From positions 1-36,353 of the forward strand of contig JARLGZ010000019.1 in assembly GCA_031292515.1 (NCBI GenBank): 36,353 nt of DNA. Reading direction: 5' to 3'. The stretch is from Puia sp. (GTDB lineage Bacteria; Bacteroidota; Bacteroidia; Chitinophagales; Chitinophagaceae). The notes below the pieces were generated by a model. That model did not search any database and had not been told where the DNA came from. It saw only the letters and a list, made by a program, of their open reading frames with translations. Both the position numbers and the translations under genes were made by a program. This document shows positions 1 through 36,353 of the stretch, piece after piece. Numbering within the stretch: position 1 is the first letter of the stretch; each line of letters opens with the position of its first letter.

Positions 1-209
1 ATCAAAGCACTTATTTGCGTATTGCCCGGGATCAAATTGAAGGTCCGTTTTGTATAGGTTATAATATGCGCAAACTACCTTCACACTGCCGAACTGTACG
101 CAAACGATTTGTTAATGGTTGCCTTTTCCGGATAAATAGGCGGAATATTCCGGTCAATGCCAGCCGGAGAGGGGCCGGTCCGGTTTTGAGAAGACGTTTT
201 GTGGTGCAT

Positions 210-1736
210 TTACCGGTTGAGCGTTCCCAGGCTTGTCACCGACAAATTCCCCGTAACATGTAACTGGATCTGCAGCCCCTGCTCCTGGCTTAACAGGCCT
301 ATGAGCTTGATATCCTTTATTTTGCCGCTTGTCCACGCGCCTGCGGAGAGAGGTCTGTTCAGTTGGGCGTCCAGCATAGGCTGGTTGGTTTTTATGAGTG
401 CGGCCAGGTCGAGATAGGAATTCCCTTCCAGCGACTTCCGGATCTTGTTTTTGAAGAGGCTCCGGGCGATTTTGAGCATGAGGTCCCCGCTTTCGAGGGA
501 ATAGCTGATATCGGGTATGGTAAGGCTCTGTTTGTCCGCGTCCAGCACAGGTGTGCCGCGCAGGAATATCCGCCCTGAATTGCTGCCGGCAAATTCGATC
601 ATGACTTCTATGCGATGTGCGGGGATGCCTCTGATGACGACATCTCTGATGACGATGGTGCGGCCTTTGATCGTGAAGACTTTGTCCCTGAGCGAGTCGT
701 CCATGAGCTTTGTAATAAAGCGATAATCGTAAAAGGCGTTCAGGTAGAGGGAAAGGCCATCCCGGTTGTCCACTGTCTGCAGCGGCGGCAGCTGCGTGGA
801 TATTTTGCCGTTGGTGCTGTCGGATGTCAGCAGGGGCCGGCAGGAGAGACCGATCGAAAGCGCGAAGGTGTCCCGGGTGTAGTTCAGCCTGCCAAGCCGG
901 ATGGCGGTGGGGTTTATCGTCAGGTATCCGTATTGGGACAAGGGTGTCTTGCTGTATGACACCGCGGTCATCTGCCGGACGAATGGCTGGAAGTCCATGC
1001 CGTTCATGTTCTGATCCATTGCCGAGCAGAAGAGCATCGCCGAGGAACGGATGCTGTCCAGTATCTGCTGGGTTACGTCCGATGAGAAGAGCGAGACCGT
1101 GCATTTATCCAGGGCCTGCAGCTGCTCGAGCCGGGTCAGGGTGCGGATCCGGTAGCCAGGCAGGGCATACAATTGCGAGCTCATGCTGATGTTCACTCTT
1201 CGCATAGGTTCCTGTCCGAATCCGCAGTTTCCGGATATCCAGGGGGATACGGGTTTGCCGAGCGCACAAAGACAACGGCTTCCTGCGATCTGGTAGCTGC
1301 CGGTCAGTTGCACTCCGAATTTGTTGTTGACACAGGTGATCTGGAGACCCGAGCGGACAAAGCGGTATTTATAGCGAAAATCGCAGGAGGGCTGCAGGTA
1401 GTTGGGCCAGCCGTCCGACGTGAATTGGCGGGGGATGGTAGAGTCGATCCGCGCCAGCAGGGCGTGGCCGACGACCTTCAGAGGGATATCGATCTCTGAT
1501 ACCGGCAGCGCGGGCAGGGTATCCGGCAGTACGGGAACGGTTGAAGAAGGGCTTGGGCGTTGTGAAGAAGCGGCCGGCGACGAGGGGGCGGAAGTGGACG
1601 AAGAACCCGGGCCAGCCAAGGACGCGGCGGAGGAAGCGGCCCTCCCGTTTTTGCCAAGCTTATGAGAGGGGGAGCAGGATTCTATTAAAAAAAGAAGCGA
1701 TAAGCAGGCGGAGACGCCCACTATGAGTCTCGTCAT
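210..1736 (-). CDS. DUF4403 family lipoprotein
   Basis: This is a predicted outer-membrane or periplasmic lipoprotein of about 508 residues, matching the DUF4403 family of Bacteroidetes, whose function is unknown. I chose the ATG at 1736 because translation from it begins with a short basic start, a hydrophobic stretch and a lipobox-like IESC with the acceptor Cys at residue 21. An in-frame TTG at 1799 would only add 21 polar residues before the signal peptide. Residues about 30-70 are a low-complexity Ser/Ala/Pro linker. The rest is the conserved body with alternating beta-rich segments and repeated 'G/A-hydrophobic' strands, as expected for this family. It ends near the left edge and has no recognisable gene downstream: positions 1-209 show no convincing coding region. 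A terminator lies between it and the upstream chitinase gene, so it is probably transcribed separately. The family assignment rests on remembered sequence style, not on a search. Confidence 0.75.
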   Translation of the reverse strand: MTRLIVGVSACLSLLFLIESCSPSHKLGKNGRAASSAASLAGPGSSSTSAPSSPAASSQRPSPSSTVPVLPDTLPALPVSEIDIPLKVVGHALLARIDSTIPRQFTSDGWPNYLQPSCDFRYKYRFVRSGLQITCVNNKFGVQLTGSYQIAGSRCLCALGKPVSPWISGNCGFGQEPMRRVNISMSSQLYALPGYRIRTLTRLEQLQALDKCTVSLFSSDVTQQILDSIRSSAMLFCSAMDQNMNGMDFQPFVRQMTAVSYSKTPLSQYGYLTINPTAIRLGRLNYTRDTFALSIGLSCRPLLTSDSTNGKISTQLPPLQTVDNRDGLSLYLNAFYDYRFITKLMDDSLRDKVFTIKGRTIVIRDVVIRGIPAHRIEVMIEFAGSNSGRIFLRGTPVLDADKQSLTIPDISYSLESGDLMLKIARSLFKNKIRKSLEGNSYLDLAALIKTNQPMLDAQLNRPLSAGAWTSGKIKDIKLIGLLSQEQGLQIQLHVTGNLSVTSLGTLNR

Positions 1737-1800
1737 TGCGAAATGGGTATAACGAGTGTGCTGGGGAGCGTGCTGAGGCGGGGGTGTCTTTTGGGTCAAG

Positions 1801-1838
1801 ATAAAAATTTTAAGGGCCCTTGCGGGGCCCTGTAAAAT
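1801..1838 (-). terminator. Intrinsic terminator after the GH18 gene
   Basis: An inverted repeat pairs AGGGCCC (1813-1819) with GGGCCCT (1825-1831). It is extended by ATTTTA (1807-1812) against TAAAAT (1833-1838) with one bulged G. Read on the minus strand it is followed by a T-rich tail. It lies 39 nt after the chitinase stop codon and before the DUF4403 gene. Confidence 0.7.
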
Positions 1839-1876: not shown

Positions 1877-3007
1877 CTATTTCCCCGGTCCTTTTCCTGT
1901 TTCCTTTAGCGTCTCGTCGATGATATCCAGCAGCCCGTCATGGAATTTGTCTTCACCCAGTTGCCAGAACATGACGCCATTCAATTGCTTGTCGACGGCG
2001 TACTTTGTTTTGAGGCGTATCGACACGGAGTCGTCATAGGTGACGAAGAGCTTCTTAGCCGCATTGTACATAAAAGGCGCCTGCGCCACCGGATCCCAAT
2101 GGCGGACAAAACCGCTGTCGGCCGGCAGGGCTTTTTCAAAGTTCCTGTAAGAGACGCCATTTTTGAATTTTGTCGGGCGGTAGAGCCCGTTATTAATGCT
2201 GTCGGCATTTTCGAATATACGGCCATAGAAGGCTGTTCCGATGGCCATTTTGCTCCGGGGAACTCCGATCGAATCCAGGTAGTTCACGGCGTGGTCGGTC
2301 GATTCCAACTGGGAGGGTGTGCTGTATAGAGGCGTATGATGCCCGGTGACGGTAGAATATCCGTTCGTCAGGTCGTAGGTCATGAGATTCACACGATCGA
2401 CGAGCGGCATGACTTTGCTCCATTCGATGGATGTCTTCAGGTAGTCGGTATAACCGCCGGCGGCAAAGCTGATTTCGGGTGTTTTGCCCAGTTTTTTGCG
2501 GAGTATCCTGATGAGGGCCGTAAAATGAGGTTTGTCGGAGGGATAGAAGGGATAGCCCGGGACGTTTACCAGGGCGGGGTATTCCCAGTCCAGGTCGATG
2601 CCGTCGGTGTGGAAATAGTCTGTGAGGTCTTTTACGGAGGCGGCAAACTGTCTGCGTCCTTTACGGGTGGCAAATACATCCGCACAGGTCTTGCACCCGC
2701 CCCATCCGCCGAGGGAGAGCATGACTTTCAGGCGGGGGTTCCTGCTTTTCAGCGATACCAGCTTTTGTATAAGGGCGGTATCCGCTGCGCGATCGACATG
2801 CATGATGTTCCCCTGCAGGTGGCAAAAGCTGAAAATGACATGGGTGAGTTTTTCGATGGAAAAACTATCGATCTCGTTGATTCTGCCGGCATAGTAGCCT
2901 ATTACAGCCGTTTGTTGGGGTGCGGATTGCGCCCGGGCGCTGCCGCCCACGAGGGTCAGCAGAACAGCCAGGAGGAAAGGACTGATACGATTCATAACAA
3001 AGTTCAT
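1877..3007 (-). CDS. Secreted GH18 chitinase-like glycoside hydrolase
   Basis: This is a family 18 glycoside hydrolase, predicted to cleave beta-1,4-linked GlcNAc polymers such as chitin by substrate-assisted catalysis. Its 376 residues begin with a signal peptide ending near SARAQ (residue 27). The barrel follows, with YYAG on strand 1 (38-41), SLGGWGG on strand 3 (98-104) and the catalytic signature DGIDLDWEYP (135-144), in which Glu142 is the proton donor and Asp140 its partner. LMTYDL is on a later strand, and the C-terminal strand contains GVMFWQLGEDK. All key catalytic residues are present. There is no carbohydrate-binding module, so it is a single-domain enzyme. An alternative ATG lies four codons in, at 2995. 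The neighbouring DUF4403 gene runs in the same direction but is separated by a terminator. Substrate could be chitin, peptidoglycan-derived GlcNAc or another GlcNAc glycan; sequence alone does not decide. Confidence 0.93.
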   Translation of the reverse strand: MNFVMNRISPFLLAVLLTLVGGSARAQSAPQQTAVIGYYAGRINEIDSFSIEKLTHVIFSFCHLQGNIMHVDRAADTALIQKLVSLKSRNPRLKVMLSLGGWGGCKTCADVFATRKGRRQFAASVKDLTDYFHTDGIDLDWEYPALVNVPGYPFYPSDKPHFTALIRILRKKLGKTPEISFAAGGYTDYLKTSIEWSKVMPLVDRVNLMTYDLTNGYSTVTGHHTPLYSTPSQLESTDHAVNYLDSIGVPRSKMAIGTAFYGRIFENADSINNGLYRPTKFKNGVSYRNFEKALPADSGFVRHWDPVAQAPFMYNAAKKLFVTYDDSVSIRLKTKYAVDKQLNGVMFWQLGEDKFHDGLLDIIDETLKETGKGPGK

Positions 3008-3232
3008 AATGATTCAAAATTAAGAAAGCGAAAGGGTTAAATGTAGAAACAAAAGAGAAAAACCGCCTAACCGATCAAGACGTCATTTTTACCGGTGAAA
3101 AAATTTTTAACAGACAACTCTCCTAAAATTCCGCACGTATCCTTTGTAAGCGTGTACTGACCATCGCGGAGTGATCACTGCGTACTTGCCATTGTGTGCG
3201 AAACCATTGTTTTAAACTGCAAAACGACGATC

Positions 3233-3814
3233 ATGAAAGTGAACCTGTTTTTATTGGCGTCCCTGGGATTTTACCTGATGACGGGTCTTTTATTATCCTG
3301 CCGAAAAGACGGCGTCAGGAGTAACCCGGTGACCACTGTCTCTGACAGTTCTGCCTCGTTTTCCGCTACGATCGGAGGCGTCAACTGGCAGACGGATTCT
3401 GTAACGGCGGTAATGGGTCATGAGTTCCCGGGGTATGCTAAAATTATTACGATAAACGGCTATACCTCGGGAAGGGTGATTTCTATCAGCCTGAGGGACA
3501 CTTCTTTTTATACATCGAATGACAGCACGCTGCTTACCGGTCAATATATTGTGAATAATCATGGGATGGATGCGGCCTTTGTCTATCTATCCGAGAAAGC
3601 GCTGGTGGGGCGGGATTCAGTATGGAGGATACAGGGCGCGGCTGAGAGCGGGACGGCAACGGTCACCGCCAGCGACGGCATCGGGAAGCTGATCTCCGGC
3701 ACATTCAATTTTACCGCGCGGGTTGTGACCCTCGATTCGATCAACCTGGGTATCGACACCTTAGCCGTGAGTAATGGGGTATTTAAAAATATCCCCTATG
3801 TTTATCTGCGTTGA
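3233..3814 (+). CDS. DUF6252-like small lipoprotein
   Basis: This is a predicted surface or periplasmic lipoprotein of 193 residues. I place the start at the ATG at 3233, where the product opens with a classic lipoprotein signal and lipobox LLSC (Cys23). An upstream in-frame ATG at 3194 would put 13 polar residues in front of it. After a short Ser/Thr spacer the mature part contains 'FSATIGGVNW', a run of beta strands, and near the end 'ISGTFNFTAR' followed by 'SNGVFKNIPY'. That order (an 'xxNGxxW' opening, then G-T-F-x-F and a final N-G-x-F) is typical of DUF6252 lipoproteins of Bacteroidetes. No function is known for that family. A degenerate repeat array begins at its stop codon. It probably stands alone: the gene to the left is divergent. 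Confidence 0.75.
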   Translation: MKVNLFLLASLGFYLMTGLLLSCRKDGVRSNPVTTVSDSSASFSATIGGVNWQTDSVTAVMGHEFPGYAKIITINGYTSGRVISISLRDTSFYTSNDSTLLTGQYIVNNHGMDAAFVYLSEKALVGRDSVWRIQGAAESGTATVTASDGIGKLISGTFNFTARVVTLDSINLGIDTLAVSNGVFKNIPYVYLR

Positions 3815-3939
3815 GGTTGAGGTGCATTGAGGTTGAGCTGAGGTATGTTGAAGTTTGGGTAGGTTGAGGGGGCGGTTTGTTAAGGTTGAGGGGTGTTGCA
3901 GCTGGGATATGTTGCGGTTGAAGTATGTTGCAGTTGGAG
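3812..3939 (+). repeat. 16-nt degenerate tandem repeat, about 8 units
   Basis: Units begin at 3812, 3828, 3849, 3865, 3881, 3897, 3913 and 3929. All are 16 nt except the second (21 nt). A rough consensus is TGMGGTTGAGGTATGT. The first TGA is the stop codon of the lipoprotein gene. Confidence 0.8.
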
Positions 3940-3956
3940 ATTATTTTCTACTTTCG
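3928..3956 (+). promoter_or_regulatory. Probable promoter of the large secreted barrel protein
   Basis: TACTTTCG at 3949-3956 matches the Bacteroidetes -7 element TAnnTTTG at all but one position. A TTG at 3928-3930 lies 18 nt upstream as a possible -33 element. The predicted start site is about 3962, roughly 22 nt before the ATG. The upstream part overlaps the last repeat units. Confidence 0.5.
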
Positions 3957-3984
3957 TCCCTACTCTTTTAAAAGACTGGACGAT

Positions 3985-6411: not shown

Positions 6412-6445
6412 TGAAGGCCTGAGACCGGAGATGATTGATTGAGGG

Positions 6446-6580
6446 GCGGATGACTGATCGATAAGAGTTGATTGGTGGAAGTGCGGATGACTAATCGGTG
6501 CGTGTTGATTGGTTGAAGCGAATGACTGATCGAGGAGAGCCGGTTGATCGAAGCGTGGATGACCGGGCGATGACAGATAC
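6446..6580 (+). repeat. 35-37-nt degenerate repeat, about 3.5 units
   Basis: Units start with GCGGATGACT or close variants at 6446, 6483, 6518 and 6553; the last is partial. The array fills the spacer between the barrel protein and the FAD oxidoreductase gene. Confidence 0.75.
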
Positions 6581-6588
6581 TCACTAAT

Positions 6589-8592
6589 ATGTATATACGT
6601 ATACTCTTGTTTTTGGGTTTGCTGACCGGTGCTTTGGCCGCCGGAGGGAGGGATCGCGCCCGGGATAAGGGGTGGTTCCAGGATGGGAGGCAGCTTCGTA
6701 CCGGGGATAAGGGATCGATCGGGGATCAGGAAGGGAGCCAGGATAAGAAGCGGATCCGGGACCGGGGACAGACCGTCTATACCGATGTGCTGGTGATTGG
6801 CGGAGGGGCCAGTGGTGTGACGACCGGTATCCAGGCGGCCCGGATGAAGGTCCGGGTGCTGATCGTAGAGGAGACGGAGTGGCTGGGAGGCATGCTGACG
6901 GCCGCGGGGGTGTCGGCGATCGATGGAGATCATCAGCTCCCGGCCGGTCTGTGGGGAGAGTTCCGTCAGCGACTGTACGATCATTACGGAGGTGCGGCGG
7001 CCGTGCAGACGGGCTGGGTGAGCAATACGCTGTTCGAGCCTTCGGTTGGCGACAGGATCTTAAAAAATATGGTGGCGGCGGAGCCTCTCCTGGAGGTTTG
7101 GTACCGGTGCAGGTGGAAGGGGCTTTTTCATGAAGACAGGCGCTGGCGGGTGACAGTGGAAAGAGATGGGCGTATCGATACCGTCGTCGCCGCGATCCTG
7201 GTCGATGCGACGGAATTGGGCGATGTATTGGCGAGGGCCGGCGCCCGGTATCGGATTGGAATGGACAGCAGGGATTCGACGGGTGAGAAGCAGGCTCCCG
7301 AGCGGGCCAACGGGATCATACAGGACCTGACTTATGTGGCGACGCTAAAGGACTATGGGGCCGGTTCCGATAAGACGATTCCCCGGCCGGCGGGCTATGA
7401 TTCTTCGGAATTCAGCTGCTGCTGCCAGTTTGCCGACCCTGCCTCCGACAAGAAACCGGTCCATGACTGTGCGCAGATGATAGAATATGGGCGACTGCCC
7501 AATAAGAAGTTTATGATCAACTGGCCGTTTTGCGGGAATGATCTCTATATGGACCTGATCGAAAAGACGGGGCAGCAGCGGGATTCGCTCCTGCGGGAAG
7601 CGCGGCTTCATACGCTTCGTTTCGTCTATTATATCCAGACGGCTTTGGGTTTTAAGCGGCTGGGTCTTGCCGATGACGAATACCCTACGCCCGACCGGTT
7701 ACCGATGATCGCCTACTACCGGGAGGCACGCCGGTGTGAGGGAGTGGTGCGGCTCTCGCTGCCTTATATAAAGGATCCGTTTTCACAGCCGTTGGCGTTA
7801 TACAGAACGGGGATAGCCGTCGGCGATTATCCCATCGATCATCACCACGGAAAAAATCCTGCGGCTCCGAAGATCGGGTTTGTGAAGATCAAAGTGCCCT
7901 CTTATAATATTCCCATGGGGTGCCTGGTGCCTGCAGGAGTAAAAGACCTGCTCGTTGCGGAGAAAAGTATCAGCGTCACCAACCTCGTCAATGGAGCTAC
8001 GCGGTTACAGCCCGTGGTCCTTCAATTGGGGCAGGCTGCGGGCGCTATGGCGGCCTTGTGTGTCAGACAGCACCGGGAACCTTCGGCGCTCGACGTCCGG
8101 TCCGTGCAGGGGGTGTTGCTGAAGGCCGGCGGGTACCTGATGCCTTATCTCGACGTAAAGGCAGACGACCCGCAATTTATAGCGATCCAGCGGATCGGGG
8201 CGACGGGCATCCTGAAGGGGGTGGGGGTGGCGCACAACTGGGCAAACGAAACCTGGTTCTACCCGGAGAAGCCGGCAGCATGGGCGGAGCTGATGGAGGG
8301 GTTGGCTTCCTATTATCCCGGCTTGAAAGAGGCGGGGCTGAAAGATATGATGGTGGGAGATGCCATGGAGCATGAATCGGTCACTCCCGATTTGCTCAGG
8401 AGGATATTCCTGGCGGCGGGCAGGCCGGTGAGCAAGGGAGACATGCAGATGTCTTTGAGCAGGATAAAAGGCTATTCACCAGACACCGTATTGAGCAGAC
8501 GGGCGGTGGCTGTGCTAATCGATCATTATCTAAAACCTTTTGAAAGAAGCATCGATATCGATGGGGCTCTTCGTCAGTCGACGGGGAGGTAA
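6589..8592 (+). CDS. Exported FAD-dependent oxidoreductase (FAD_oxidored type)
   Basis: This 667-residue flavoprotein resembles the FAD_oxidored group (PF12831), common in Bacteroidetes carbohydrate loci and often labelled 'xanthan lyase' in databases without evidence. A short hydrophobic N-terminus (residues 1-18) looks like a signal peptide. A charged repeat linker follows (about 20-61), made of six-residue units such as 'GDKGSI' and 'QDKKRI'. The Rossmann dinucleotide-binding motif is VIGGGASG (69-76), with 'LIVEETEWLGGMLTAAG' downstream as the second FAD-contact strand. 'DATELGDVLARAGARY' is the usual mid-domain motif, and the C-terminal FAD motif lies around 'NGATRLQPVVLQLGQAAG'. The substrate is unknown; oxidation of a sugar or glycoside is plausible from the neighbour upstream. 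The family core is complete. The repeat linker between signal peptide and FAD domain is the odd feature. Confidence 0.8.
   Translation: MYIRILLFLGLLTGALAAGGRDRARDKGWFQDGRQLRTGDKGSIGDQEGSQDKKRIRDRGQTVYTDVLVIGGGASGVTTGIQAARMKVRVLIVEETEWLGGMLTAAGVSAIDGDHQLPAGLWGEFRQRLYDHYGGAAAVQTGWVSNTLFEPSVGDRILKNMVAAEPLLEVWYRCRWKGLFHEDRRWRVTVERDGRIDTVVAAILVDATELGDVLARAGARYRIGMDSRDSTGEKQAPERANGIIQDLTYVATLKDYGAGSDKTIPRPAGYDSSEFSCCCQFADPASDKKPVHDCAQMIEYGRLPNKKFMINWPFCGNDLYMDLIEKTGQQRDSLLREARLHTLRFVYYIQTALGFKRLGLADDEYPTPDRLPMIAYYREARRCEGVVRLSLPYIKDPFSQPLALYRTGIAVGDYPIDHHHGKNPAAPKIGFVKIKVPSYNIPMGCLVPAGVKDLLVAEKSISVTNLVNGATRLQPVVLQLGQAAGAMAALCVRQHREPSALDVRSVQGVLLKAGGYLMPYLDVKADDPQFIAIQRIGATGILKGVGVAHNWANETWFYPEKPAAWAELMEGLASYYPGLKEAGLKDMMVGDAMEHESVTPDLLRRIFLAAGRPVSKGDMQMSLSRIKGYSPDTVLSRRAVAVLIDHYLKPFERSIDIDGALRQSTGR
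6661..6774 (+). repeat. 18-nt in-frame repeat in the oxidoreductase N-terminus
   Basis: Units lie at 6661-6678, 6679-6702 (24 nt), 6703-6720, 6721-6738, 6739-6756 and 6757-6774. They share the shape GGGATAAG followed by variable bases, and encode six-residue 'xDKxxx' units between the signal peptide and the FAD domain. Confidence 0.75.
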
Positions 8593-9440
8593 CCCAGCTC
8601 TGCAAGATCGTCCATCTTTTTGGCCAGGCGGGTCTTGCCATTTGAGAGAACGTATAGCCTGTCGGCACAACTCACGATAGGGCGGTAGAGATGGTCTGTG
8701 ATGAGGATCCCCTTGTGTTTTTTTTCTTCGGCCAGTATTTCAATCATGGTATCCACATGCAGGGGCATGAGATGGGAGAAGGGTTCGTCGAGCATCGCGA
8801 ACCGGGAGGGGGACCTGGCGATCAGGTAGACTTCGGTGAGGCGTCTCTGCCCGCCTGACAACTGCCTGATGCGGGATCGGTATAGCCGGCTGAATTCGGG
8901 GAATCTTTTTTCAAAGTCTCCGAAGTCGAGACCGAAGTCGGGAAACAACCTTTTCAGGGTCAGGGATCCGGGGATGAAATGAAATTGCGGAAGGTAGACG
9001 AGCAGGTCCGGGCGTTTAAAGGCTTTTGGATAGGATTGGTGGTCTATACGGATAGATTTCGTTTCGACGGGCAGGCTGCCGTAAATAATATTCATGAGGC
9101 AGGTCTTGCCTTGCCCATTTCTGCCGAGCAACCCGGTGATCCTTCCGGTCTCGCAAAGCAAATAGATGTCTTGAAGGATTTTCCGCTCTCCGAATTGCAG
9201 TTGGATACCATCGGCTTCGAGCTTATGGGAGGCGACAGGCGGCGGAGGGGGGCCTGCCGGAGGAACCTCCGGAGGGACGGTCGGGGGAATTGTTGGAGGA
9301 GCTGCCGGAGGGACGGTTGGAGGGGTGGCAGGAGGGGCGTCCGGGGGAATTGTCGGAGGAATGCCCGGAGCCGTTGTCGGAAGGATGGTTGGAAGAGTTG
9401 TCAACGGGGTTGGCGAGATCGGCGGGGTCGGCGAGATCAT
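8574..9440 (-). CDS. ABC transporter ATP-binding protein with proline-rich N-terminal extension
   Basis: This 288-residue protein is an ABC ATPase that should power transport, or a related membrane process, with the small membrane protein encoded just upstream. The nucleotide-binding domain runs from about residue 72 to the end. Walker A is GRNGQGKT (106-113), the signature is LSGGQ (194-198), Walker B is FAMLDE (214-219) and the H-loop His is 250. All motifs are intact. The first ~70 residues are abnormal for the family: nine successive PPxx tetrapeptides (28-63) followed by a run of prolines. They are encoded by a 12-nt repeat, and the ATG at 9440 is the only ATG ahead of the domain. The gene starts 9 nt after the preceding stop codon, so the two are co-transcribed. 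Its last codons overlap the convergent FAD oxidoreductase gene by 19 nt. The transported substrate cannot be inferred. Confidence 0.85.
   Translation of the reverse strand: MISPTPPISPTPLTTLPTILPTTAPGIPPTIPPDAPPATPPTVPPAAPPTIPPTVPPEVPPAGPPPPPVASHKLEADGIQLQFGERKILQDIYLLCETGRITGLLGRNGQGKTCLMNIIYGSLPVETKSIRIDHQSYPKAFKRPDLLVYLPQFHFIPGSLTLKRLFPDFGLDFGDFEKRFPEFSRLYRSRIRQLSGGQRRLTEVYLIARSPSRFAMLDEPFSHLMPLHVDTMIEILAEEKKHKGILITDHLYRPIVSCADRLYVLSNGKTRLAKKMDDLAELGYLPVD
9250..9360 (-). repeat. 12-nt in-frame repeat encoding PPxx units
   Basis: About nine degenerate 12-nt units (GGAGGnnnnnCC-like on the plus strand) encode nine consecutive Pro-Pro-x-x tetrapeptides in the ABC ATPase N-terminus. Flanking sequence on both sides is similarly GGx-rich. 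Confidence 0.7.
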
Positions 9441-9449
9441 GGGGGACGG

Positions 9450-9802: not shown

Positions 9803-9870
9803 GCTCCTTTCCGTCAATTAGCGTCGATTTAAGTAATTTTTAAGGTTTATATTTAAGATCTGTTCAAATG

Positions 9871-9976
9871 TCCTGAGACAAAATATCCTGAGACAATAAA
9901 AAAGCAAACTATGCCAAAGATGACTCTGCACAAGATCACTCAACACAAAATGACTCAACACAAGAAGACTCTACAT
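9871..9976 (+). repeat. 15-nt repeats across the leader and first codons of the Nif3-like gene
   Basis: TCCTGAGACAAWAWA occurs at 9871-9885 and again at 9886-9900. In the coding region four 15-nt units (9917-9931, 9932-9946, 9947-9961, 9962-9976) encode K-x-T-x-H pentapeptides. The stretch around the ATG between them is weakly similar to the coding units. Confidence 0.8.
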
Positions 9977-10969
9977 AAATTGGGGAGGAGGGATTTTGTA
10001 GGCGGTGTGCTGGCGGCGCTGGGAGCTGCTGCTTTTTCGCCCCTACAGGGATTGGCTGCAGGCGAGTCCCTGTTGTCTCCGGGAGGGGCTGAGGGAACTC
10101 AGGGGGCTGTTGGGACTGGTGGGTTTGGCTTTGCCGGGGCGCGGGAGAGCGGGATTCCCAAAGGGCCCGGAGGGCCGGAGGCGCTTACCATCCGGCAGGT
10201 GATTGACCTGATCCTGGCAAAAATACCCGGGGCGCCATTTCCGCAGACCGTCGATACGATCAAGGCGGGCAACCCCGATCAGCCGGTGAAGGGGATCGTC
10301 ACCACGATGTTTGCCACCGATGCGGTGATTGCCGATGCGATCCGGCTGAATGCCAATTTCATCATCGCGCATGAGCCGACGTATTATAACCACCTGGACC
10401 AGACGGAGTGGCTGGCGGGTGATCCGGTATACCAGTATAAAAAGGATCTGCTGGAAAAACATGGAATCGTCGTCTGGCGCTTTCACGATTCCTGGCATTC
10501 GCACCGGCCCGATGGTATCCTGATGGGGGTGCTGGTAGCTATGGGATGGGATAAATATTACGATGCTTCAAAGCCTCATATAGTCAGTATTCCGCCGGCT
10601 TCTTTGGAGAATATTATTAGAACGGCCAAACAGGGGTTAGGCATCGAAAAGGTAAAGGTCATCGGAGACCTGTCGCAGGTCTGTAAGCGCATCCTGATGA
10701 TGCCGGGGGCCGCGGGCGGGACAGCGCAGATAAAGGCCATCCGGGCTGAGGAGCCGGACCTGCTGTTGTGCGGGGAACTCAACGAGTGGGAGACGAGCGA
10801 ATATATCAGGGATTTTCGTTATCAAGGCGGTAAGACGGCCCTGGTCGATCTGGGGCATTCTGTGAGCGAGGAGCCGGGGATGGAATGGCTGGTATCCTGG
10901 CTGGAGCCAAAGGTGCCCGGTGTAAGGGTGACGCATGTGCCTTCCGGCGAAGCGTTCCGCTTTCTCTGA
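9911..10969 (+). CDS. Tat-exported Nif3-like dinuclear-metal protein
   Basis: This 352-residue protein belongs to the Nif3/GTP cyclohydrolase I type 2-like family, in which a hexamer carries a two-metal site of unclear biochemical role. The fold covers residues about 90-352. Metal-site signatures are IIAHEPTYY (151-159, His154 and Glu155), 'FHDSWHSHRPD' (191-201), 'LLLCGELNEWE' and 'DLGHSVSEEPGMEWL' near the C-terminus. Unlike typical cytoplasmic Nif3 proteins, it has a twin-arginine signal, GRRDFVGG (25-32), followed by an Ala-rich hydrophobic core ending near residue 50, so export by the Tat pathway is predicted. Ahead of the Tat motif are four pentapeptide repeats (K-x-T-x-H, residues 3-22) encoded by 15-nt repeats, and a Gly-rich linker (55-88) follows the signal. 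The ATG at 9911 is the only start that keeps the repeats; the TTG at 9980 lies just before the twin arginines and is a possible alternative. Confidence 0.85.
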   Translation: MPKMTLHKITQHKMTQHKKTLHKLGRRDFVGGVLAALGAAAFSPLQGLAAGESLLSPGGAEGTQGAVGTGGFGFAGARESGIPKGPGGPEALTIRQVIDLILAKIPGAPFPQTVDTIKAGNPDQPVKGIVTTMFATDAVIADAIRLNANFIIAHEPTYYNHLDQTEWLAGDPVYQYKKDLLEKHGIVVWRFHDSWHSHRPDGILMGVLVAMGWDKYYDASKPHIVSIPPASLENIIRTAKQGLGIEKVKVIGDLSQVCKRILMMPGAAGGTAQIKAIRAEEPDLLLCGELNEWETSEYIRDFRYQGGKTALVDLGHSVSEEPGMEWLVSWLEPKVPGVRVTHVPSGEAFRFL

Positions 10970-11068
10970 GGCGGGATATACTGAGAGGCGGGATGTACAG
11001 TGATGCGAGATGTACTGTGAAGCGCGAGTCTGTCTGAGGCGGGAGTTTCTCTGAAGTGGTGGGTATAA
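10967..11068 (+). repeat. 17-nt degenerate tandem repeat, about 6 units
   Basis: Units start at 10967, 10982, 11001, 11018, 11035 and 11052 with lengths 15, 19, 17, 17, 17 and about 17 nt. All begin TGA followed by a GCGGGA-like core. The first TGA is the stop codon of the Nif3-like gene. Confidence 0.8.
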
Positions 11069-15361: not shown

Positions 15362-16180
15362 CTAAACGACTGCCTTCCGGATTTTGACTAATTGCTGCAG
15401 CAATGGCTCCAGCAAATCCAATCTCAGCATATTGGCTCCGTCACTTTTGGCCGAAGCCGGATCGGGATGGGTCTCTATGAACAGGCCGTTCGCACCCGTC
15501 GCGATAGCCGCTTTGGCGATGGTGCCGATCAGTTGCGGATTGCCGCCGGTCACGCCGGATGTCTGGTTTGGCTGTTGCAGGGAATGGGTGCAATCCATAA
15601 CGACGGGTGTCTTGTGTTCCTGCATCCAGGGTATATTCCGGTAATCGACTACCAGGTCCTGGTAACCAAAGGTGGTGCCTCTTTCCGTGAGCAGGATCTT
15701 ATCGTTGCCTGCATTCCGGATCTTTTCCACCGCAAATTTCATCGATAGTCCGCTGAGGAATTGGCCTTTTTTTACGTTTACGACTTTGCCTGTCGCAGCG
15801 GCTGCCAGGAGCAGGTCTGTCTGGCGGCAGAGGAACGCGGGTATCTGCAGGATGTCCACGTACTGAGCGGCAGGGGCCGCTTCGTCGTGTGCATGGATAT
15901 CGGAAGTCGTGGGCAGTTTGTATTTTTCGCCTACCTTTTTTACGAGGGCCAGCCCGTTTTCGTCTCCGATCCCCGTAAAGGAAGATGCGCTGGTGCGGTT
16001 CGCCTTACGGTAGGATGCTTTAAAGACATAGGGGATCCCCAGGTTGCTGCAGATCTTCGAGACTTTGTCCGCCACCTCCATGACGAGGCCTTCGCTTTCC
16101 ACCACGCAGGGACCGGCGATCAGGAAGAAATTGTTTTTGTCGTATGATTGGTGTTTGAAGAGATGGTCTAGAAATTCCAT
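15362..16180 (-). CDS. kdsA: 3-deoxy-8-phosphooctulonate synthase (KDO8P synthase)
   Basis: This enzyme condenses phosphoenolpyruvate with arabinose 5-phosphate to KDO 8-phosphate, the committed step to the KDO of lipopolysaccharide inner core. The 272-residue product shows the family motifs IAGPCVVES (21-29), FKASYRKANRTS (53-64), VDILQIPAFLCRQTDLL (108-124), VKKGQF (136-141) and MDCTHSLQQPN (195-205). It has the metal ligands of the metal-dependent class: Cys25, His199, Glu236 and Asp247. These keep a constant offset of 14 from the Aquifex enzyme residues (Cys11, His185, Glu222, Asp233), whereas the metal-free class has Asn at the first position. The ATG at 16180 lies 4 nt after a perfect TAGCTTTG promoter element, so the mRNA is probably leaderless. 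No other KDO gene is adjacent. Confidence 0.96.
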   Translation of the reverse strand: MEFLDHLFKHQSYDKNNFFLIAGPCVVESEGLVMEVADKVSKICSNLGIPYVFKASYRKANRTSASSFTGIGDENGLALVKKVGEKYKLPTTSDIHAHDEAAPAAQYVDILQIPAFLCRQTDLLLAAAATGKVVNVKKGQFLSGLSMKFAVEKIRNAGNDKILLTERGTTFGYQDLVVDYRNIPWMQEHKTPVVMDCTHSLQQPNQTSGVTGGNPQLIGTIAKAAIATGANGLFIETHPDPASAKSDGANMLRLDLLEPLLQQLVKIRKAVV

Positions 16181-20124: not shown

Positions 20125-21219
20125 ATGTATTCCCGTGCACGGCTGGCCCGAAAGTATCTGCATTATTATCTCACTGCTTCCAATGGGAAGGGGCATGGGA
20201 TTCATTCTCCTTTTGTATATGCGTTTGTGAAAAATGTGTTGAATGATGACGGTGTTTATCCGGCCTATGATGCTGTTGAAAAAATGAGGGCCCGCTTGTC
20301 GGCGGATCGACGGATGCTGGAGATCGAGGATTGGGGGGCCGGGTCGGTATTGGACGGGGAGGCGACGGTGGAAGACGAAACGGTGCGGGAAGAGAGGACG
20401 GTCCATGATGAGAGGGCTGTCCGGGAGGATAAGACGGTCCGGGGTTTGCCGGGTGTTCGTGAGGATGAGCTGATCCGGGGTGTGGGGGGTATTCGGGAGG
20501 ATGGGTGGGTCGCAAAAGGGGAGACCCGCGGGGACGTGGGGAGGGCTGTGGCGGAGGTATCCGACCGGGATGAGGAGGGGATCGCAGCCGGAGCGGTTAA
20601 CGCAAAGAAGGAAAAGAACGAAAAGAACGAAGGGAAGGCGGCGGTTCAGGCCAGGACACGGTTTCGGAGCGTCTCCCAACTCGCCGTGCACGCCGCCAAA
20701 TCGCGCAAGCTGGGTCAGTTGCTGTTCCGTATCGCGCACTACTATCAGCCCCGGACGATCCTGGAGCTGGGCACCTGTCTGGGGATATCGACGGCTTATC
20801 TGTCTTATGGGGCGCCTAAGGCTAAGTTGCTGACGATCGAGGGTGCGCCTGCCATCGCCGACGAAGCAGAAAAAAATTTCCGCGATCTCGGTCTGCATAA
20901 TATAGAAGTGGTCACCGGGAATTTTGAGGATTGGCTGCCACTGGTGCTCGACAGGCTGGGGGGTATCGAGCTGGCTTTTATAGACGGGAACCATCGCAAG
21001 GAGCCGACCTTGCGTTATTTCCATTTGTTAATGGGCAGGGTCGTTTTGCCGGCGGTGCTGATATTTGACGATATTCACTGGAGCGCTGGCATGGAAGAGG
21101 CCTGGGAGACGATCAGGCGGGATCCGCGCGTGTTGCTGACAGTCGATCTGTTCTTTGTCGGCCTGGTGTTTTTGCGGGAGGAGTTCAAGAGGAAGCAGGA
21201 TTTTGTGATCCGGTTTTGA
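20125..21219 (+). CDS. Class I SAM-dependent methyltransferase with a large repeat insertion
   Basis: This is a predicted O-methyltransferase-like enzyme of 364 residues. The ATG at 20125 is 4 nt after folA, and homologous Bacteroidetes proteins, as I recall them, open with similar 'YLHYYLxASNxxGHGIHSPFVYxFV'. The SAM-binding core starts at LELGTCLGIS (213-222), followed by the acidic loop 'LLTIEG' (235-240), 'VVTGNFED' and 'ELAFIDGNH' as motifs II-III, and a C-terminal beta hairpin. What is unusual is residues about 75-177, between 'EDWGAGS' and 'RSVSQLAVHA'. In relatives these segments are joined by only a short loop. Here about 100 residues of charged repeats (TVREER, TVHDER, AVREDK…) and a Lys/Glu-rich tail intervene. 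The frame is open throughout. The substrate is unknown. Confidence 0.8.
   Translation: MYSRARLARKYLHYYLTASNGKGHGIHSPFVYAFVKNVLNDDGVYPAYDAVEKMRARLSADRRMLEIEDWGAGSVLDGEATVEDETVREERTVHDERAVREDKTVRGLPGVREDELIRGVGGIREDGWVAKGETRGDVGRAVAEVSDRDEEGIAAGAVNAKKEKNEKNEGKAAVQARTRFRSVSQLAVHAAKSRKLGQLLFRIAHYYQPRTILELGTCLGISTAYLSYGAPKAKLLTIEGAPAIADEAEKNFRDLGLHNIEVVTGNFEDWLPLVLDRLGGIELAFIDGNHRKEPTLRYFHLLMGRVVLPAVLIFDDIHWSAGMEEAWETIRRDPRVLLTVDLFFVGLVFLREEFKRKQDFVIRF
20365..20520 (+). repeat. 18-nt in-frame repeat inside the methyltransferase gene
   Basis: Units lie at 20365-20379 (15 nt), 20380-20397, 20398-20415, 20416-20433 and then more loosely to about 20520, with the core ACGGTCCGGGAGGA. They encode (T/A)V-x-(E/D)-(E/D)-(R/K) hexapeptides. 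Confidence 0.75.
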
Positions 21220-30490: not shown

Positions 30491-30522
30491 AATACCGGCT
30501 CTGAATAATACCGGCTCTGAAT
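30491..30522 (+). repeat. Perfect 16-bp tandem duplication
   Basis: AATACCGGCTCTGAAT occurs at 30491-30506 and, without any change, at 30507-30522, in the spacer before the copper-monooxygenase gene. Confidence 0.95.
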
Positions 30523-30565
30523 ATTATATTGTTATTCTATTGTCATTCTGATACGAATCCTGCAT

Positions 30566-31897: not shown

Positions 31898-31978
31898 TGA
31901 AGCTGAAATTTGAATGGAGCAGCATTTTTGTTGGCCGGAGCGCAGAGGCCGCAGTAGTGAAGTGGCAGACCGGATAAA

Positions 31979-31997
31979 TATTTTTGGCTTATTTTTG
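31979..31997 (+). promoter_or_regulatory. Two overlapping-region -7 elements before the rRNA methyltransferase gene
   Basis: TATTTTTG occurs at 31979-31986 and again at 31990-31997, both perfect TAnnTTTG matches. They lie inside the frame that would be used from the ATG at 31914, and support the shorter start at 32025. Confidence 0.45.
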
Positions 31998-32024
31998 ACG
32001 CTCATCATCAAACGGGATCCCGAA

Positions 32025-33559: not shown

Positions 33560-34744
33560 ATGCGAAAACCAGCAGCCCTATTTCTACTGATCGGATTTCT
33601 GTTTATCAATCATTCCTATGGCCAATCCTCCGAGTTATTAGTGCAGGGGGAGACCGGCAAATTGTACCTGCTTCATACGGTGGCTCCCAAAGAGAATTGG
33701 TATAGTGTGGGAAGGCTTTTCAACCTGAGCCCCAAAGAAATAGCTCCCTTTAATCATCTCACGATGGATAAGCCCCTGGACATCGGGGAGTCTCTTCAGA
33801 TCCCCCTGACCTCCGCTAATTTCTCACAGAGCGGGCCGAAGGCCGCGGCGGGGGAGACCCTGGTTCCTGTATACCATATCGTCCAGGAGAAGGAATGGAT
33901 GTACCGGATCAGCGTGAACCACAATAAAGTCCCTGTCGAGAACCTGGAGAAGTGGAACAGCATCAGCAAGGATAATGTGAAAGCGGGCATGCACCTGGTT
34001 ATCGGGTACCTGAAAGTGAAGACGGCGCTGTCGGCCCTGGCTTCCGGGGGTGCCAGTCCCGTAGCGGTGGTCCGCAATGCCGCCGACAGCCAGGCTAAAG
34101 CCAGGCAGGTGGTCGCTTCCACGGGTGTTTCTGCAGGCACTTCCACCGGCACGGGGGTGGTTAGCGGCCCTGCTAAGAGCAAACCGGCGAATATGCATGC
34201 GGATAGTGTATCGGGGGGCAGGGTTGGCGGTGGTACCGGATCCAATACAGGTGTTGGATCGGCTTCCGGCGACACGGGATCGACGACGGGCAGTACAGGG
34301 ACGACAACAGGAGCCGGCTCGGGTAATAAGAGCCCGGGTGCTACGGGAACGGCTGGCACAGGATCAGGGGGAACGGGATCCGCTGGCACAGGAACGGGCG
34401 GTACAGGACCGGGAACCGCCGGCGGCGGGGCCGCTCATTTTAACGGAGGATATTTCAAGACGGACTATAATGACGAAAACCTCTCGGCCAGCGGGGTGGC
34501 GGGTGTGTTCAAGAGCACCAGCGGCTGGCAGGATGGCAAATATTATGCGTTGATGAATAATGTGGCCGTGGGGACCATCATCAGGGTCACGGCTTCGGCT
34601 AACAATAAGACGATTTATGCGAAAGTACTCGGGCAGCTGCCGGATATGAAAGAGAGTGCCGGCATGACGATCCGGATCAGCAATGCGGCCGCCAGCGAAC
34701 TTGCGCAGACTGACCCCAAATTCAATGTCGATGTGAGGTATTAA
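33560..34744 (+). CDS. LysM and RlpA-like (double-psi barrel) secreted protein
   Basis: This 394-residue exported protein probably binds peptidoglycan. The signal peptide ends near NHSYGQ (22). Two LysM-like modules follow at about 36-83 ('LHTVAPKENWYSVGRLFNLSP') and 103-150 ('YHIVQEKEWMYRISVNHNKVP'). Residues about 185-290 are an extended Gly/Thr/Ser-rich linker with GTGSGGTGSAG-like units. The C-terminal ~100 residues (about 295-394) resemble the double-psi beta-barrel of RlpA/expansin-like proteins ('YYALMNNVAVGTIIRVTA', 'KTIYAKVLGQLPDM'). RlpA proteins are lytic transglycosylases or septal-ring factors; activity here is not established. The ATG at 33560 is 44 nt after the rRNA methyltransferase stop and has its own promoter elements. 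The fmt gene is convergent, with its stop codon overlapping this gene's end. Confidence 0.85.
   Translation: MRKPAALFLLIGFLFINHSYGQSSELLVQGETGKLYLLHTVAPKENWYSVGRLFNLSPKEIAPFNHLTMDKPLDIGESLQIPLTSANFSQSGPKAAAGETLVPVYHIVQEKEWMYRISVNHNKVPVENLEKWNSISKDNVKAGMHLVIGYLKVKTALSALASGGASPVAVVRNAADSQAKARQVVASTGVSAGTSTGTGVVSGPAKSKPANMHADSVSGGRVGGGTGSNTGVGSASGDTGSTTGSTGTTTGAGSGNKSPGATGTAGTGSGGTGSAGTGTGGTGPGTAGGGAAHFNGGYFKTDYNDENLSASGVAGVFKSTSGWQDGKYYALMNNVAVGTIIRVTASANNKTIYAKVLGQLPDMKESAGMTIRISNAAASELAQTDPKFNVDVRY
34112..34430 (+). repeat. Low-complexity Gly/Thr/Ser linker repeats in the LysM protein
   Basis: The nucleotide sequence is built of irregular GGNACNGGN-type units encoding about 100 residues of Gly/Thr/Ser/Ala between the second LysM and the barrel domain. 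Confidence 0.75.
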
Positions 34745-35832
34745 AAATTTTTATACCCGCGCAGGAAGTCTTCTGTTTTCATTTTCTTTTTTCCTTCCAG
34801 TTGGATCTCCTCTGCGTAGATATATCCATCCTTTGCGGCGAAACGCAGGAAGCTCTTCTTGTCGGTCTCGTACTGGCCCGGTGAGACGGCGGGGGTTGTG
34901 ATCTCTTTGCGGGAGCGATAGATCTTTAGCAACTTTCCGTCCAGCCAGGTGTAGGCCCCGGGGAAAGGAGACAAGCCCCTGATGAGATTGTGGATGGTTT
35001 GGGTATCCTTGCCCCAATCGATCTTGCCGGTTTCGGTGAAGATTTTCGGGGCGTGGTTGAGAGGGGGAGTGAGTGGTGAGTGGTGAGTAGTGAGTAGTGA
35101 GTGGCCAGTGGGGAGTGGGGTGGCTTCGGGAGTATTTGAGGAGTTGGGGACGTTTGGTGGGACGATAAGGTTTTGGGGGATGTCTTTCAGAGTGCCGGCG
35201 GCGAGGCCTTCGACTGTCCGGATCAGCAACCGCGCGCCGATCTCTTTCATCCGGTCGTGCACTTCTCCGGCCGTCTCGTCTTCTCCGATGGGGAAGCTGT
35301 CCTGCAACAGGATGTTTCCGGTGTCGATCTCCTGCTGCAATTTGAAGGTGGTGACACCCGTGACCTTTTCTCCGTTTATCACAGCCCAGTTGATGGGGGC
35401 GGCTCCGCGGTATTGGGGCAACAGGGACCCATGCAGGTTGAGGGTACCCATGGGGGGCATGTTCCAGACCCGTTCCGGCAGCATGCGGAAGGCTACGACG
35501 ATTTGCAGGTCCGCGCGTAGAGCCCTCAGTTCCTCCAGGAAAGCGGGGTTCTTCAATTTTTCGGGCTGCAGGATGAGCAGGCCTTTCTCAAGAGCATATT
35601 TTTTCACCGCACTCGCGGTCATCTGCATGCCCCTGCCGGCCGGTTTGTCCGGTGCGGTGATGACGGCGACGATATTACAGCCTTTTTGGACGAGGGCATC
35701 CAGGGACGCGACGGCGAATTCAGGTGTTCCCATGAAGACGATACGCAGATCGGTGAGTGGTGAGTGGTGAGTGGTGAGTGGGGATGAGGACGGTGATGAC
35801 GAGGAGGATGATGAAGATGATTGAGCGTTCAT
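34741..35832 (-). CDS. fmt: Methionyl-tRNA formyltransferase with two repeat-derived insertions
   Basis: This enzyme transfers a formyl group from 10-formyl-tetrahydrofolate to the initiator Met-tRNA. At 363 residues it is about 50 longer than the E. coli enzyme (315). The catalytic residues are Asn132, His134 and Asp170, at a constant offset of 26 from the E. coli Asn106/His108/Asp144. They lie in TLNLHGSLLPQYRGAAPINW and the downstream QQEIDTGNI. The conserved start 'RIVFMGTPEFAV' appears only at residue 30. The first 28 residues are Ser-rich plus PLTTHHSPLT. A second segment with LLTTHHSPLT interrupts the protein just before HAPKIFTE. Both come from the same GGTGAGT heptanucleotide repeat. 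An alternative start (CTG coding for Leu29) would bypass the first. The fold should still be active. Confidence 0.92.
   Translation of the reverse strand: MNAQSSSSSSSSSPSSSPLTTHHSPLTDLRIVFMGTPEFAVASLDALVQKGCNIVAVITAPDKPAGRGMQMTASAVKKYALEKGLLILQPEKLKNPAFLEELRALRADLQIVVAFRMLPERVWNMPPMGTLNLHGSLLPQYRGAAPINWAVINGEKVTGVTTFKLQQEIDTGNILLQDSFPIGEDETAGEVHDRMKEIGARLLIRTVEGLAAGTLKDIPQNLIVPPNVPNSSNTPEATPLPTGHSLLTTHHSPLTPPLNHAPKIFTETGKIDWGKDTQTIHNLIRGLSPFPGAYTWLDGKLLKIYRSRKEITTPAVSPGQYETDKKSFLRFAAKDGYIYAEEIQLEGKKKMKTEDFLRGYKNF
35068..35102 (-). repeat. Heptanucleotide repeat, 5 units, inside fmt
   Basis: The plus-strand units are AGTGAGT, GGTGAGT, GGTGAGT, AGTGAGT and AGTGAGT at 35068-35102. The repeat encodes the central LLTTHHSPLT segment. 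Its 35-nt length is not a multiple of three. Confidence 0.9.
35752..35779 (-). repeat. Heptanucleotide repeat, 4 perfect units, at the fmt 5' end
   Basis: Four exact GGTGAGT copies occupy 35752-35779, followed by a GAT/GAG-rich tract to 35821. Together they encode the Ser-rich, PLTTHHSPLT N-terminus. Its 28-nt length is not a multiple of three. Confidence 0.95.
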
Positions 35833-35894
35833 GGCTGGGCGTTATTCTGTGTTTACACTGTGTGATTCTCTATTTATCTGGTGTCGTTCCGGTT

Positions 35895-36353
35895 TTAGAA
35901 ATCGGTATACAGCAGGTATTTTTTCCGGATCCTTTTGAAGGCGGAGAGGGCGGGCTCCCAGCTCTCTCGGATCTCTTTTTCGCTCTTGCCGGCAATGAGT
36001 TGCGCCATCAGGGCGTCTCCGCCCGCCAGCTTGTTGAAGAAAGAGCCTTTGTTCAGGAAGAATTCATTTTTGGACGGGAAGAGCCGGTAGGCCAGCAGCA
36101 GCCATTTCAGGGTGAAGGAATGACCCGTCTCTTTCAGCGGGTCGCTTTTGCTAAGGTCGTATCCATAACAAGTCTGGTCCATCAGGGGCGGGTGTTTGGC
36201 GCCTTCCACGCTTCGCGGGATAAAGCTGTAGAGGTTTTTTGGGAACGAGGGGTGTCCGAACTGGCGAAAGGGCTTGTCGGTGCCTCTTCCCAGGCTGACG
36301 GCGGTTCCTTCAAAAAAGCAAAGGGAGGGGTACAGGTAGATGGATTGCATGTC
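35895..36353 (-). CDS. NamZ-type exo-beta-N-acetylmuramidase (DUF1343/GH171), C-terminal part
   Basis: This is the C-terminal ~153 residues of a protein continuing beyond the right edge of the window. The visible part shows 'LYPSLCFFEGTAVSLGRGTDKPF', the central signature of the DUF1343 family, here as SIYLYPSLCFFEGT then GRGTDKPFRQFGHP, followed by a conserved Tyr-rich segment (TCYGYDLS) and the C-terminal 'FKRIRKKYLLY'. NamZ enzymes (GH171) remove terminal MurNAc from peptidoglycan fragments and support cell-wall recycling. The ATG inside the window at 36350 is an internal Met, not the start. The gene runs in the same direction as fmt, with 62 nt between its stop and the fmt ATG. Confidence 0.88.
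   Translation of the reverse strand, partial: DMQSIYLYPSLCFFEGTAVSLGRGTDKPFRQFGHPSFPKNLYSFIPRSVEGAKHPPLMDQTCYGYDLSKSDPLKETGHSFTLKWLLLAYRLFPSKNEFFLNKGSFFNKLAGGDALMAQLIAGKSEKEIRESWEPALSAFKRIRKKYLLYTDF

What the first reader, a model, noticed from the sequence alone, without database searches (positions are those of the whole stretch)
1..36353. Window-wide degenerate short-period repeats, each locus with its own unit, in spacers and in frame inside genes
At least a dozen loci carry degenerate tandem repeats with different unit lengths (7, 12, 15, 16, 17, 18, 25, about 32 and about 36 nt). They occur in intergenic spacers and also at protein N-termini and linkers (FAD oxidoreductase, ABC ATPase, Nif3-like, methyltransferase, rRNA methyltransferase, LysM protein, fmt). 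Units are not shared between loci, so this is not one transposed element. It looks like a local process that generates and then lets drift tandem repeats wherever sequence constraint is low, similar in style to the short tandemly repeated sequences of some cyanobacteria. The mechanism and any function are unknown.
Basis: partly seen in the sequence, partly recalled or inferred. Interest (0 to 1): 0.8.

Follow-up and report, generated by a model that had tools for sequence, protein, structure and literature searches.

The report
Home-grown tandem repeats filling unconstrained DNA
In this Bacteroidota genome the loose DNA between genes and between protein domains carries many decayed short tandem repeats, most of them made separately at each site and one seven-letter kind shared across the genome, which looks like a frequent copying error that is tolerated where sequence matters little.

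Summary
In detail: 13 tandem-repeat loci (TRF score 50 or more) in the window against 0.12 in local shuffles. The genome behaves likewise: 245 arrays in 1.23 Mb sampled, about 20 per 100 kb, against 6.5 in 80 named, mostly Bacteroidota, loci and 1 in E. coli; some relatives match it, others have none. Two classes: 206 of 245 arrays have locus-private units; 39 form one dispersed heptamer family, GGTGAGT, which includes both fmt arrays, so 'units are not shared' is only mostly right. Seven array-bearing gaps compared with the syntenic sister genome are all longer here (median +96 nt). In reading frames periods divisible by 3 prevail (73 of 98; outside 39 of 108). The methyltransferase linker is 113 residues; 56 of the 120 listed homologues have 14. 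Best explanation: local tandem duplication (slippage or template switching) plus drift, filtered by frame and constraint; the molecular step is inferred. Here the G-rich strand follows GC skew; six other family genomes do not clearly show this. A known kind; density, frame filter and polarity make a variant.

The parts
3797..3947 (.). Degenerate 16/32-nt arrays in the spacer before and at the start of ORF 3925-6411; TRF loci 3807-3837 and 3894-3938. They stand at one edge of a gene that the sister genome lacks here
   Evidence: (loose score 118)
6428..6576 (.). 37-nt degenerate array, about 3-4 copies, in the spacer after ORF 3925-6411 (other edge of the same gene)
   Evidence: score 117; loose 167
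6643..6768 (+). In-frame degenerate repeats between signal peptide and domain of the FAD oxidoreductase (ORF 6589-8592); stretch shorter in G019 and absent in G001 and G015
   Evidence: loose scoring only, 150; protein alignment
9256..9449 (-). 12/24/36-nt and 18-nt arrays coding a proline-rich N-terminal extension of the ABC ATPase (ORF 8574-9440); gap 129 nt longer than in the sister genome
   Evidence: protein comparison void: the G019 ORF is cut at Ns
9866..9896 (.). 15-nt array in the spacer before the Nif3-like gene
   Evidence: score 55
9917..9975 (+). 15-nt in-frame array at the N-terminus of the Nif3-like protein; with 9866-9896 the gap is 64 nt longer than in the sister genome
   Evidence: score 76
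10961..11054 (.). 17-nt array, about 5 copies, between the Nif3-like and aconitase genes; gap 173 nt longer than in the sister genome
15195..15289 (.). 25-nt degenerate array beside the gene of ORF 15362-16180 (KDO-8-phosphate synthase-like, named by eye); gap 92 nt longer than in the sister genome
   Evidence: loose scoring only, 93
20370..20639 (+). 18/36-nt and 9-nt in-frame arrays in the linker of the O-methyltransferase (ORF 20023-21219): 113 residues between two motifs against a mode of 14 in listed homologues
30491..30549 (.). 16-nt and 11-nt arrays in a spacer; gap 70 nt longer than in the sister genome
32995..33063 (+). 15/30-nt in-frame array in a linker of the RsmF-like rRNA methyltransferase (ORF 31914-33515); about 32 residues absent in G015 and G001
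34335..34423 (+). 15-nt in-frame Gly/Thr-rich array in the LysM protein (ORF 33560-34744); stretch absent in G015, the only relative aligned
   Evidence: loose scoring only, 83
35069..35118 (-). Heptamer GTGAGTG x7.1 coding TTHHSPLT-type sequence in the linker between the two fmt domains; linker 25 or more residues longer than in G015 and G001
35752..35814 (-). Heptamer GGTGAGT x4.3 plus a 15-nt array at the N-terminus of fmt; gap 96 nt longer than in the sister genome

Best explanation
The arrays are products of a genome-wide mutational process: repeated short tandem duplication (replication slippage or template switching) that starts from whatever sequence lies at a site, is followed by point-mutation drift and re-duplication of neighbouring copies, and persists mainly where sequence is free, that is in spacers, N-terminal extensions and interdomain linkers, in genes mostly as multiples of three. 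One heptamer, GGTGAGT and its variants, is a special case that recurs at many sites and in many genera. Shown by comparison: locus-private units, length gains relative to relatives, placement between conserved blocks, frame filter, neighbouring copies more alike, G-rich polarity along GC skew in this genome. Inferred: slippage or template switching as the molecular step, a raised rate in this lineage, and replication (not transcription) as the cause of the polarity. No function of the arrays is needed.
For: Excess over shuffles and over E. coli and the average of 80 named loci. Units private: 2 similar pairs among 206 arrays, shuffles 1-5. Gain: the 7 array-bearing gaps (loose TRF score 60 or more) are all longer than in G019, median +96 nt, against median +30 in 11 gaps without arrays (p 0.004; 2 of 20 gaps, with whole genes gained or lost, were left out, one of them array-bearing). 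In-frame array segments are absent or shorter in the relatives aligned for the methyltransferase, FAD oxidoreductase, Nif3, RsmF, LysM and fmt-linker segments (1 to 3 relatives each). At the methyltransferase linker 56 of the 120 listed homologues (of 7,087 found; the window's own protein is one of the 120) have 14 residues, 62 have 15-56, one 10, the window 113; the longer ones differ from each other by eye. Frame: 73 of 98 non-heptamer arrays in ORF calls have 3n periods, 39 of 108 outside, p 3e-8. 32 of 104 in-ORF arrays lie in the first tenth of the ORF. Adjacent copies are more alike than distant ones in 28 of 38 arrays with four or more copies (0.789 against 0.717). Polarity: 169 of 229 arrays with unequal G and C follow local GC skew; non-heptamer arrays are about twice as skewed as matched DNA nearby (0.133 against 0.059 outside ORFs); in genes lying against the skew, 32 of 43 arrays follow the skew, not the gene.
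Against: No strain closer than about 72-85% DNA identity was found among the 33 genus genomes searched, own included, so no copy-number change was caught, and no ancestral single-copy seed could be shown. The polarity does not generalise clearly: in six other family genomes 29 of 41 heptamer sites and 36 of 70 other arrays followed skew, and at skew 0.03 or more 12 of 19 and 13 of 28. The recurrence of one exact heptamer in 41 of 244 family genomes, this one included (control heptamer 9 of 244), is not predicted by unbiased slippage. mutS is present and unbroken, so loss of mismatch repair is not the cause. Five of the 11 gaps without arrays are also 55 nt or more longer in this genome, and G019 has arrays of its own in 4 of the 20 gaps, so spacer growth is neither one-sided nor only by visible arrays.
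Confidence: 0.72

Rival explanations
1. Dispersed repeat element: the heptamer arrays (not the rest) spread by copying a seed from site to site, like short tandemly repeated repetitive sequences, perhaps also between species.
For: One unit at many sites: 39 of 245 arrays, 642 similar pairs; 33 + 24 exact two-unit matches genome-wide; 41 of 244 family genomes in 29 of 101 genera, patchy within genera, against 9 of 244 for a composition-matched control heptamer with one match each (that control read backwards reached 3 + 2 in one genome); three-unit arrays in 41 stretches of viral contigs.
Against: No shared body: among 78 flanks of 150 nt only one true shared stretch of 33 nt (a second hit is the overlapping flank of two neighbouring arrays). 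Explains at most 39 of 245 arrays. No enzyme or terminal structure was looked for.
Confidence: 0.12
2. Functional polar signal: GGTGAGT arrays are read by a fork- or recombination-related protein (as Chi or KOPS sites are), which is why they point along the leading strand.
For: 26 of 27 heptamer arrays follow local skew where its size is 0.03 or more, 19 of 19 at 0.06 or more; same-contig sites agree in orientation in 33 of 40 pairs, permutation p 0.001.
Against: 6 of 12 where skew is weaker. Single copies outside arrays are not over-represented (67th of 105 permutations of the same letters) and have a strand ratio of 51:25 against a mean of 69:43; no exact two-unit match in the four other genus genomes; polarity weak elsewhere (29 of 41).
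Confidence: 0.05
3. Protein-level selection for flexible linkers and N-terminal tails makes low-complexity insertions useful, and repeats are the way to make them.
For: In-frame periods dominate in ORFs; insertions sit at signal peptides and domain borders.
Against: The same process fills spacers with non-3n periods (69 of 108 non-heptamer arrays outside ORF calls); the commonest methyltransferase linker is 14 residues (56 of 120).
Confidence: 0.07
4. Chance, assembly error or annotation artefact.
For: Draft genome of 285 contigs with a 3.2% contamination estimate; ORF calls here are crude.
Against: Shuffle controls; arrays are short and degenerate, and synteny with G019 is kept around most of them; the frame filter is not expected from artefact.
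Confidence: 0.02

Closest known systems
Heptameric simple sequence repeats / short tandemly repeated repetitive sequences (GGGNATC in Xanthomonas and Nostoc, PMC4692102; heptanucleotides of Calothrix as cited there)
   Same: Seven-nucleotide unit, dispersed over the genome, mostly outside ORFs, variable copy number; that paper cites polymerase slippage as a hypothesis
   Different: Here the unit is GGTGAGT without runs of three G; it makes up only 39 of 245 arrays; in this genome it points along GC skew, while the Xanthomonas repeats are reported to show no leading or lagging strand preference (abstract and passages seen)
TAACTGA direct repeats of Beggiatoaceae, Cyanobacteria and some Bacteroidetes (PMC4679880)
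   Same: Patchy across distant taxa; for three long Bacteroidetes repeat sets relatives with the same neighbours have shorter spacers without obvious repeats (abstract and section 10 read)
   Different: In the Beggiatoaceae genome mostly just upstream of start codons and thought regulatory; here in spacers and inside genes, and most arrays are not heptameric
Bacterial minisatellite / VNTR loci in proteins (recalled)
   Same: In-frame tandem repeats in linkers
   Different: Here strongly decayed and found in housekeeping genes as well as spacers

Membership tests
Dispersed heptameric repeats (STRR-like) | Same 7-nt unit in tandem at many loci | tested here: met
   39 of 245 arrays; 642 similar pairs against 18-36 shuffled; 2 of the window's 13 loci
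Dispersed heptameric repeats (STRR-like) | Mostly outside genes | tested here: met
   33 of 39 outside ORF calls; the two window arrays are inside fmt
Dispersed heptameric repeats (STRR-like) | All or most arrays of the finding carry the shared unit | tested here: not met
   206 of 245 arrays are not of this unit and are private: the finding as a whole is not filed under this family
Locally generated tandem repeats (slippage/minisatellite kind) | Units private to the locus, adjacent copies most alike | tested here: met
   2 similar pairs among 206; adjacent more alike in 28 of 38 arrays, both classes together
Locally generated tandem repeats (slippage/minisatellite kind) | Copy-number variation between strains of the species | not testable with these tools
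   No strain of the species was found; nearest is G019
Mobile repeat element | Shared body or ends beyond the unit | tested here: not met
   Heptamer class: 1 true shared stretch among 78 flanks of 150 nt
Chi/KOPS-like oriented motif | Single motif over-represented and strand-biased through the genome | tested here: not met
   Singletons rank 67 of 105 permutations with a near-average strand ratio

The most novel reading that the evidence does not exclude
This lineage carries a replication-fork-linked tandem-duplication mutator, strongest for G-rich units on the leading strand, that continually writes private repeats into unconstrained DNA and thereby invents new linkers and N-terminal tails in housekeeping proteins; the recurrent GGTGAGT heptamer is its favoured sequence, explaining why unrelated genera of the family evolve the same heptamer.
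Probability: 0.25. Interest if true: 0.7.

Novelty: new variant of a known kind. Interest (0 to 1): 0.48.

Why it matters
It gives a bacterium in which the birth, drift and frame-filtering of tandem repeats can be read across many sites, and shows repeat text adding tens of residues to enzymes such as fmt and methyltransferases. If the polarity is real and fork-driven, it ties an old puzzle (why heptamers recur in bacterial genomes) to a testable replication step. It also warns annotators that N-termini and linkers in such genomes can be recent repeat text.

Tried and rejected
Loss of MutS as cause: rejected, an unbroken mutS1 is present (C183); other repair genes were not looked at. Chi/KOPS-like motif: rejected by singleton counts. 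Mobile element: no shared flanks. RNA families: no Rfam match in the window at gathering scores. tRNA-anchored repeats: no tRNA in the window. Polarity as a rule of the family: not upheld in G097 (11 of 31 arrays) and G133 (7 of 16), nor clearly with four more genomes added. The 'pattern read backwards' control is void, because the heptamer read backwards is a rotation of itself; a composition-matched heptamer was used instead. Literature: searches listed no paper that I recognised as describing GGTGAGT arrays or strand-oriented private repeats in Chitinophagaceae; the library holds open-licence papers only. Of papers I saw listings, three outlines with abstracts, one section and passages.

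Limits of the counts: ORF calls are greedy longest ORFs of at least 100 aa, not a gene finder. The 60 own stretches plus the window (1,226,353 bases) were spaced on five large contigs known, not drawn at random. Stretches of G097, G133, G264, G197, G251 and G120 were chosen around heptamer hits. Relatives were sampled by 20-60 kb each, around hits of earlier searches. The 80 named loci all lie around aconitase, and a few bear labels outside Bacteroidota. For same-contig orientation the 57 exact matches were typed as 42 sites, leaving out overlapping registers and one close neighbour, and merged to 40.
Full report
What the window is. The window is a whole 36,353-base contig (C81) of a 7.34-Mb draft genome with 285 contigs. 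Gene content, SusC/SusD-like proteins among it (named by eye from the translation), and nearest named hits (aconitase 82% to Flavisolibacter longurius; methyltransferase homologues named Puia sp. and Flavitalea flava) place it in or near Chitinophagaceae, Bacteroidota. Its nearest relative among those searched is G019, syntenic in four contigs at about 72-85% DNA identity.

The repeats are real. TRF gives 13 loci at score 50 or more against 0.12 in 100 local dinucleotide shuffles, none of which passed 1. Twenty 20-kb stretches of the same genome give 77 loci against 2.0 shuffled, and 60 stretches plus the window give 245 non-overlapping arrays in 1.23 Mb. The window at 35.8 per 100 kb is denser than the genome average of about 20, within the range of the stretches (0-9 per 20 kb). 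Other genomes vary: G015 37.5, G019 16.6, G014 15, G022 and G021 10, G002 5, G007 3.3, G008 2.9, G001 and G017 0 per 100 kb in samples of 20-60 kb; 80 named loci around aconitase average 6.5 with 36 of 80 having none (shuffled 0.7); E. coli K-12 has 1 in 100 kb (shuffled 0.4). So high density is a patchy property that this genome shares with some relatives.

Two classes. Comparing arrays with each other, 206 of 245 are private: 2 similar pairs between loci against 1-5 in five shuffles. The other 39 form one family around GGTGAGT/AGTGAGT with longer units such as 14, 21, 28 and 42 nt: 642 similar pairs against 18-36. Exact tandem heptamer runs number 172 against 73 shuffled, 60 of them in the two leading classes. 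Both fmt arrays of the window belong here. The same heptamer in two-unit form occurs in 41 of 244 genomes of the family, this one included, in 29 of 101 genera, up to 58 matches in one genome; a control heptamer of the same letters occurs in 9 of 244, once each, and read backwards reached 3 + 2 matches in one genome. The three-unit form occurs in 3 of 296 genomes drawn across the phylum, this one included.

Where they sit. 141 of 245 arrays lie outside ORF calls, in 10.7% of the sequence. Inside ORFs, 73 of 98 non-heptamer arrays have periods divisible by three, against 39 of 108 outside (p 3e-8), with 15 and 18 nt commonest; 32 of 104 in-ORF arrays lie in the first tenth of the ORF. Of the window's 13 strong loci, 11 lie in gaps between blocks aligned with G019 (one overlaps a block end by a few bases), none lies wholly inside a block, and 2 (33005-33055 and 35069-35118) lie where G019 has no contig.

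They are mostly private gains. Of 20 gaps between neighbouring aligned blocks, two hold whole-gene differences and were set aside, one of them with arrays at both edges; of the remaining 18, the 7 with arrays (loose score 60 or more) are all longer in this genome (+64 to +225 nt, median +96), the 11 without have a median of +30 (range -81 to +92; p 0.004). Five of these 11 are also 55 nt or more longer here, and G019 has arrays of its own in 4 of the 20 gaps. In protein alignments the array-coded segments are absent from the methyltransferase, RsmF linker and fmt linker of G001 and G015, from the FAD oxidoreductase N-terminus of both, and from the LysM protein of G015; G019 has shorter and different text in the methyltransferase, FAD and Nif3 proteins. 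For the ABC protein only the DNA gap speaks, because the G019 ORF is cut at Ns. In the 120 listed methyltransferase homologues (of 7,087 found; the window's own protein is one of them) the linker is 14 residues in 56, 15-56 in 62, 10 in one, and 113 in the window, the longest; the longer ones carry low-complexity text that differs between many of them by eye. The site is permissive, and the text seems to be invented anew.

Polarity. In this genome the G-rich strand of arrays follows local GC skew computed with arrays masked: 169 of 229 arrays with unequal G and C. The heptamer arrays do so in 26 of 27 cases where the skew is 0.03 or more and 6 of 12 where it is weaker. At skew 0.03 or more, non-heptamer arrays outside ORFs have signed skew 0.133 against 0.059 in matched control DNA, in ORFs 0.093 against 0.038 (p 1e-5 and 0.005). 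By sign alone the difference from controls is modest: 47 of 55 against 494 of 691 outside ORFs at skew 0.06 or more (p 0.03). In ORFs, 65 of 93 arrays follow the skew and 44 of 93 have the G-rich strand as coding strand; in genes that run against the skew, 32 of 43 follow the skew. Among 22 intergenic heptamer arrays at skew 0.03 or more, 16 have both neighbours co-oriented with the skew, so transcription is not fully separated from replication. In six other genomes the effect is weak: 29 of 41 heptamer sites and 36 of 70 other arrays, at skew 0.03 or more 12 of 19 and 13 of 28. That GC skew marks the leading strand is established knowledge, not tested here, since the genome is not closed.

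Mechanism. Adjacent copies are more alike than distant ones (28 of 38 arrays with four or more copies, 0.789 against 0.717), as expected if arrays grow by duplicating neighbours. I infer slippage or template switching. MutS is intact, and loops of this size are in any case beyond its usual range (recalled). What raises the rate here is unknown. Single GGTGAGT copies are not enriched and heptamer arrays share no flanking body, which speaks against a Chi-like signal and against a mobile element; why this heptamer recurs remains open. MacGregor (PMC4679880, abstract and section 10) noted for some Bacteroidetes TAACTGA sets that relatives with the same neighbours have shorter spacers without obvious repeats, as here; Rehm et al. 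(PMC4692102, abstract and passages) cite polymerase slippage as a hypothesis for heptamers and report no strand preference.

Verdict. It is a new variant of a known kind: decayed local tandem repeats at high density, filtered by frame, with a strand polarity in this genome that deserves a test on a closed assembly.

Noticed in passing
window 3812-6758: A whole gene (ORF 3925-6411, glycosidase-like by eye) is present here and absent at this place in sister G019 (2945 nt against 164 nt), with degenerate arrays at both edges; G019 has its own 17-nt array at the empty junction (L140 7394-7440). Arrays may mark rearrangement points.
   Followed up: partly
window 8325-8603; L140 about 2771-5730: The sister genome has about 2.7 kb more than the window between the FAD oxidoreductase and ABC ATPase genes, with no strong array in the window gap.
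   Followed up: no
genomes G002 and G007: 29 and 33 matches to the MutS family profile (some from one protein) against 5 in the window's genome: many MutS-like paralogues in two relatives that have few repeats in the small samples taken.
   Followed up: no
viral contigs L307-L347: 41 stretches of viral contigs hold three tandem GGTGAGT units; 2 of them (L328, L342) have them on both strands.
   Followed up: no
stretches of G097, G133 and G015: A second heptamer class (AATCGAG, 14 runs) stands out in the pooled G097 and G133 stretches, and G015 has GTACAAG-type heptamers (3 runs): lineages may have their own favoured sets.
   Followed up: no
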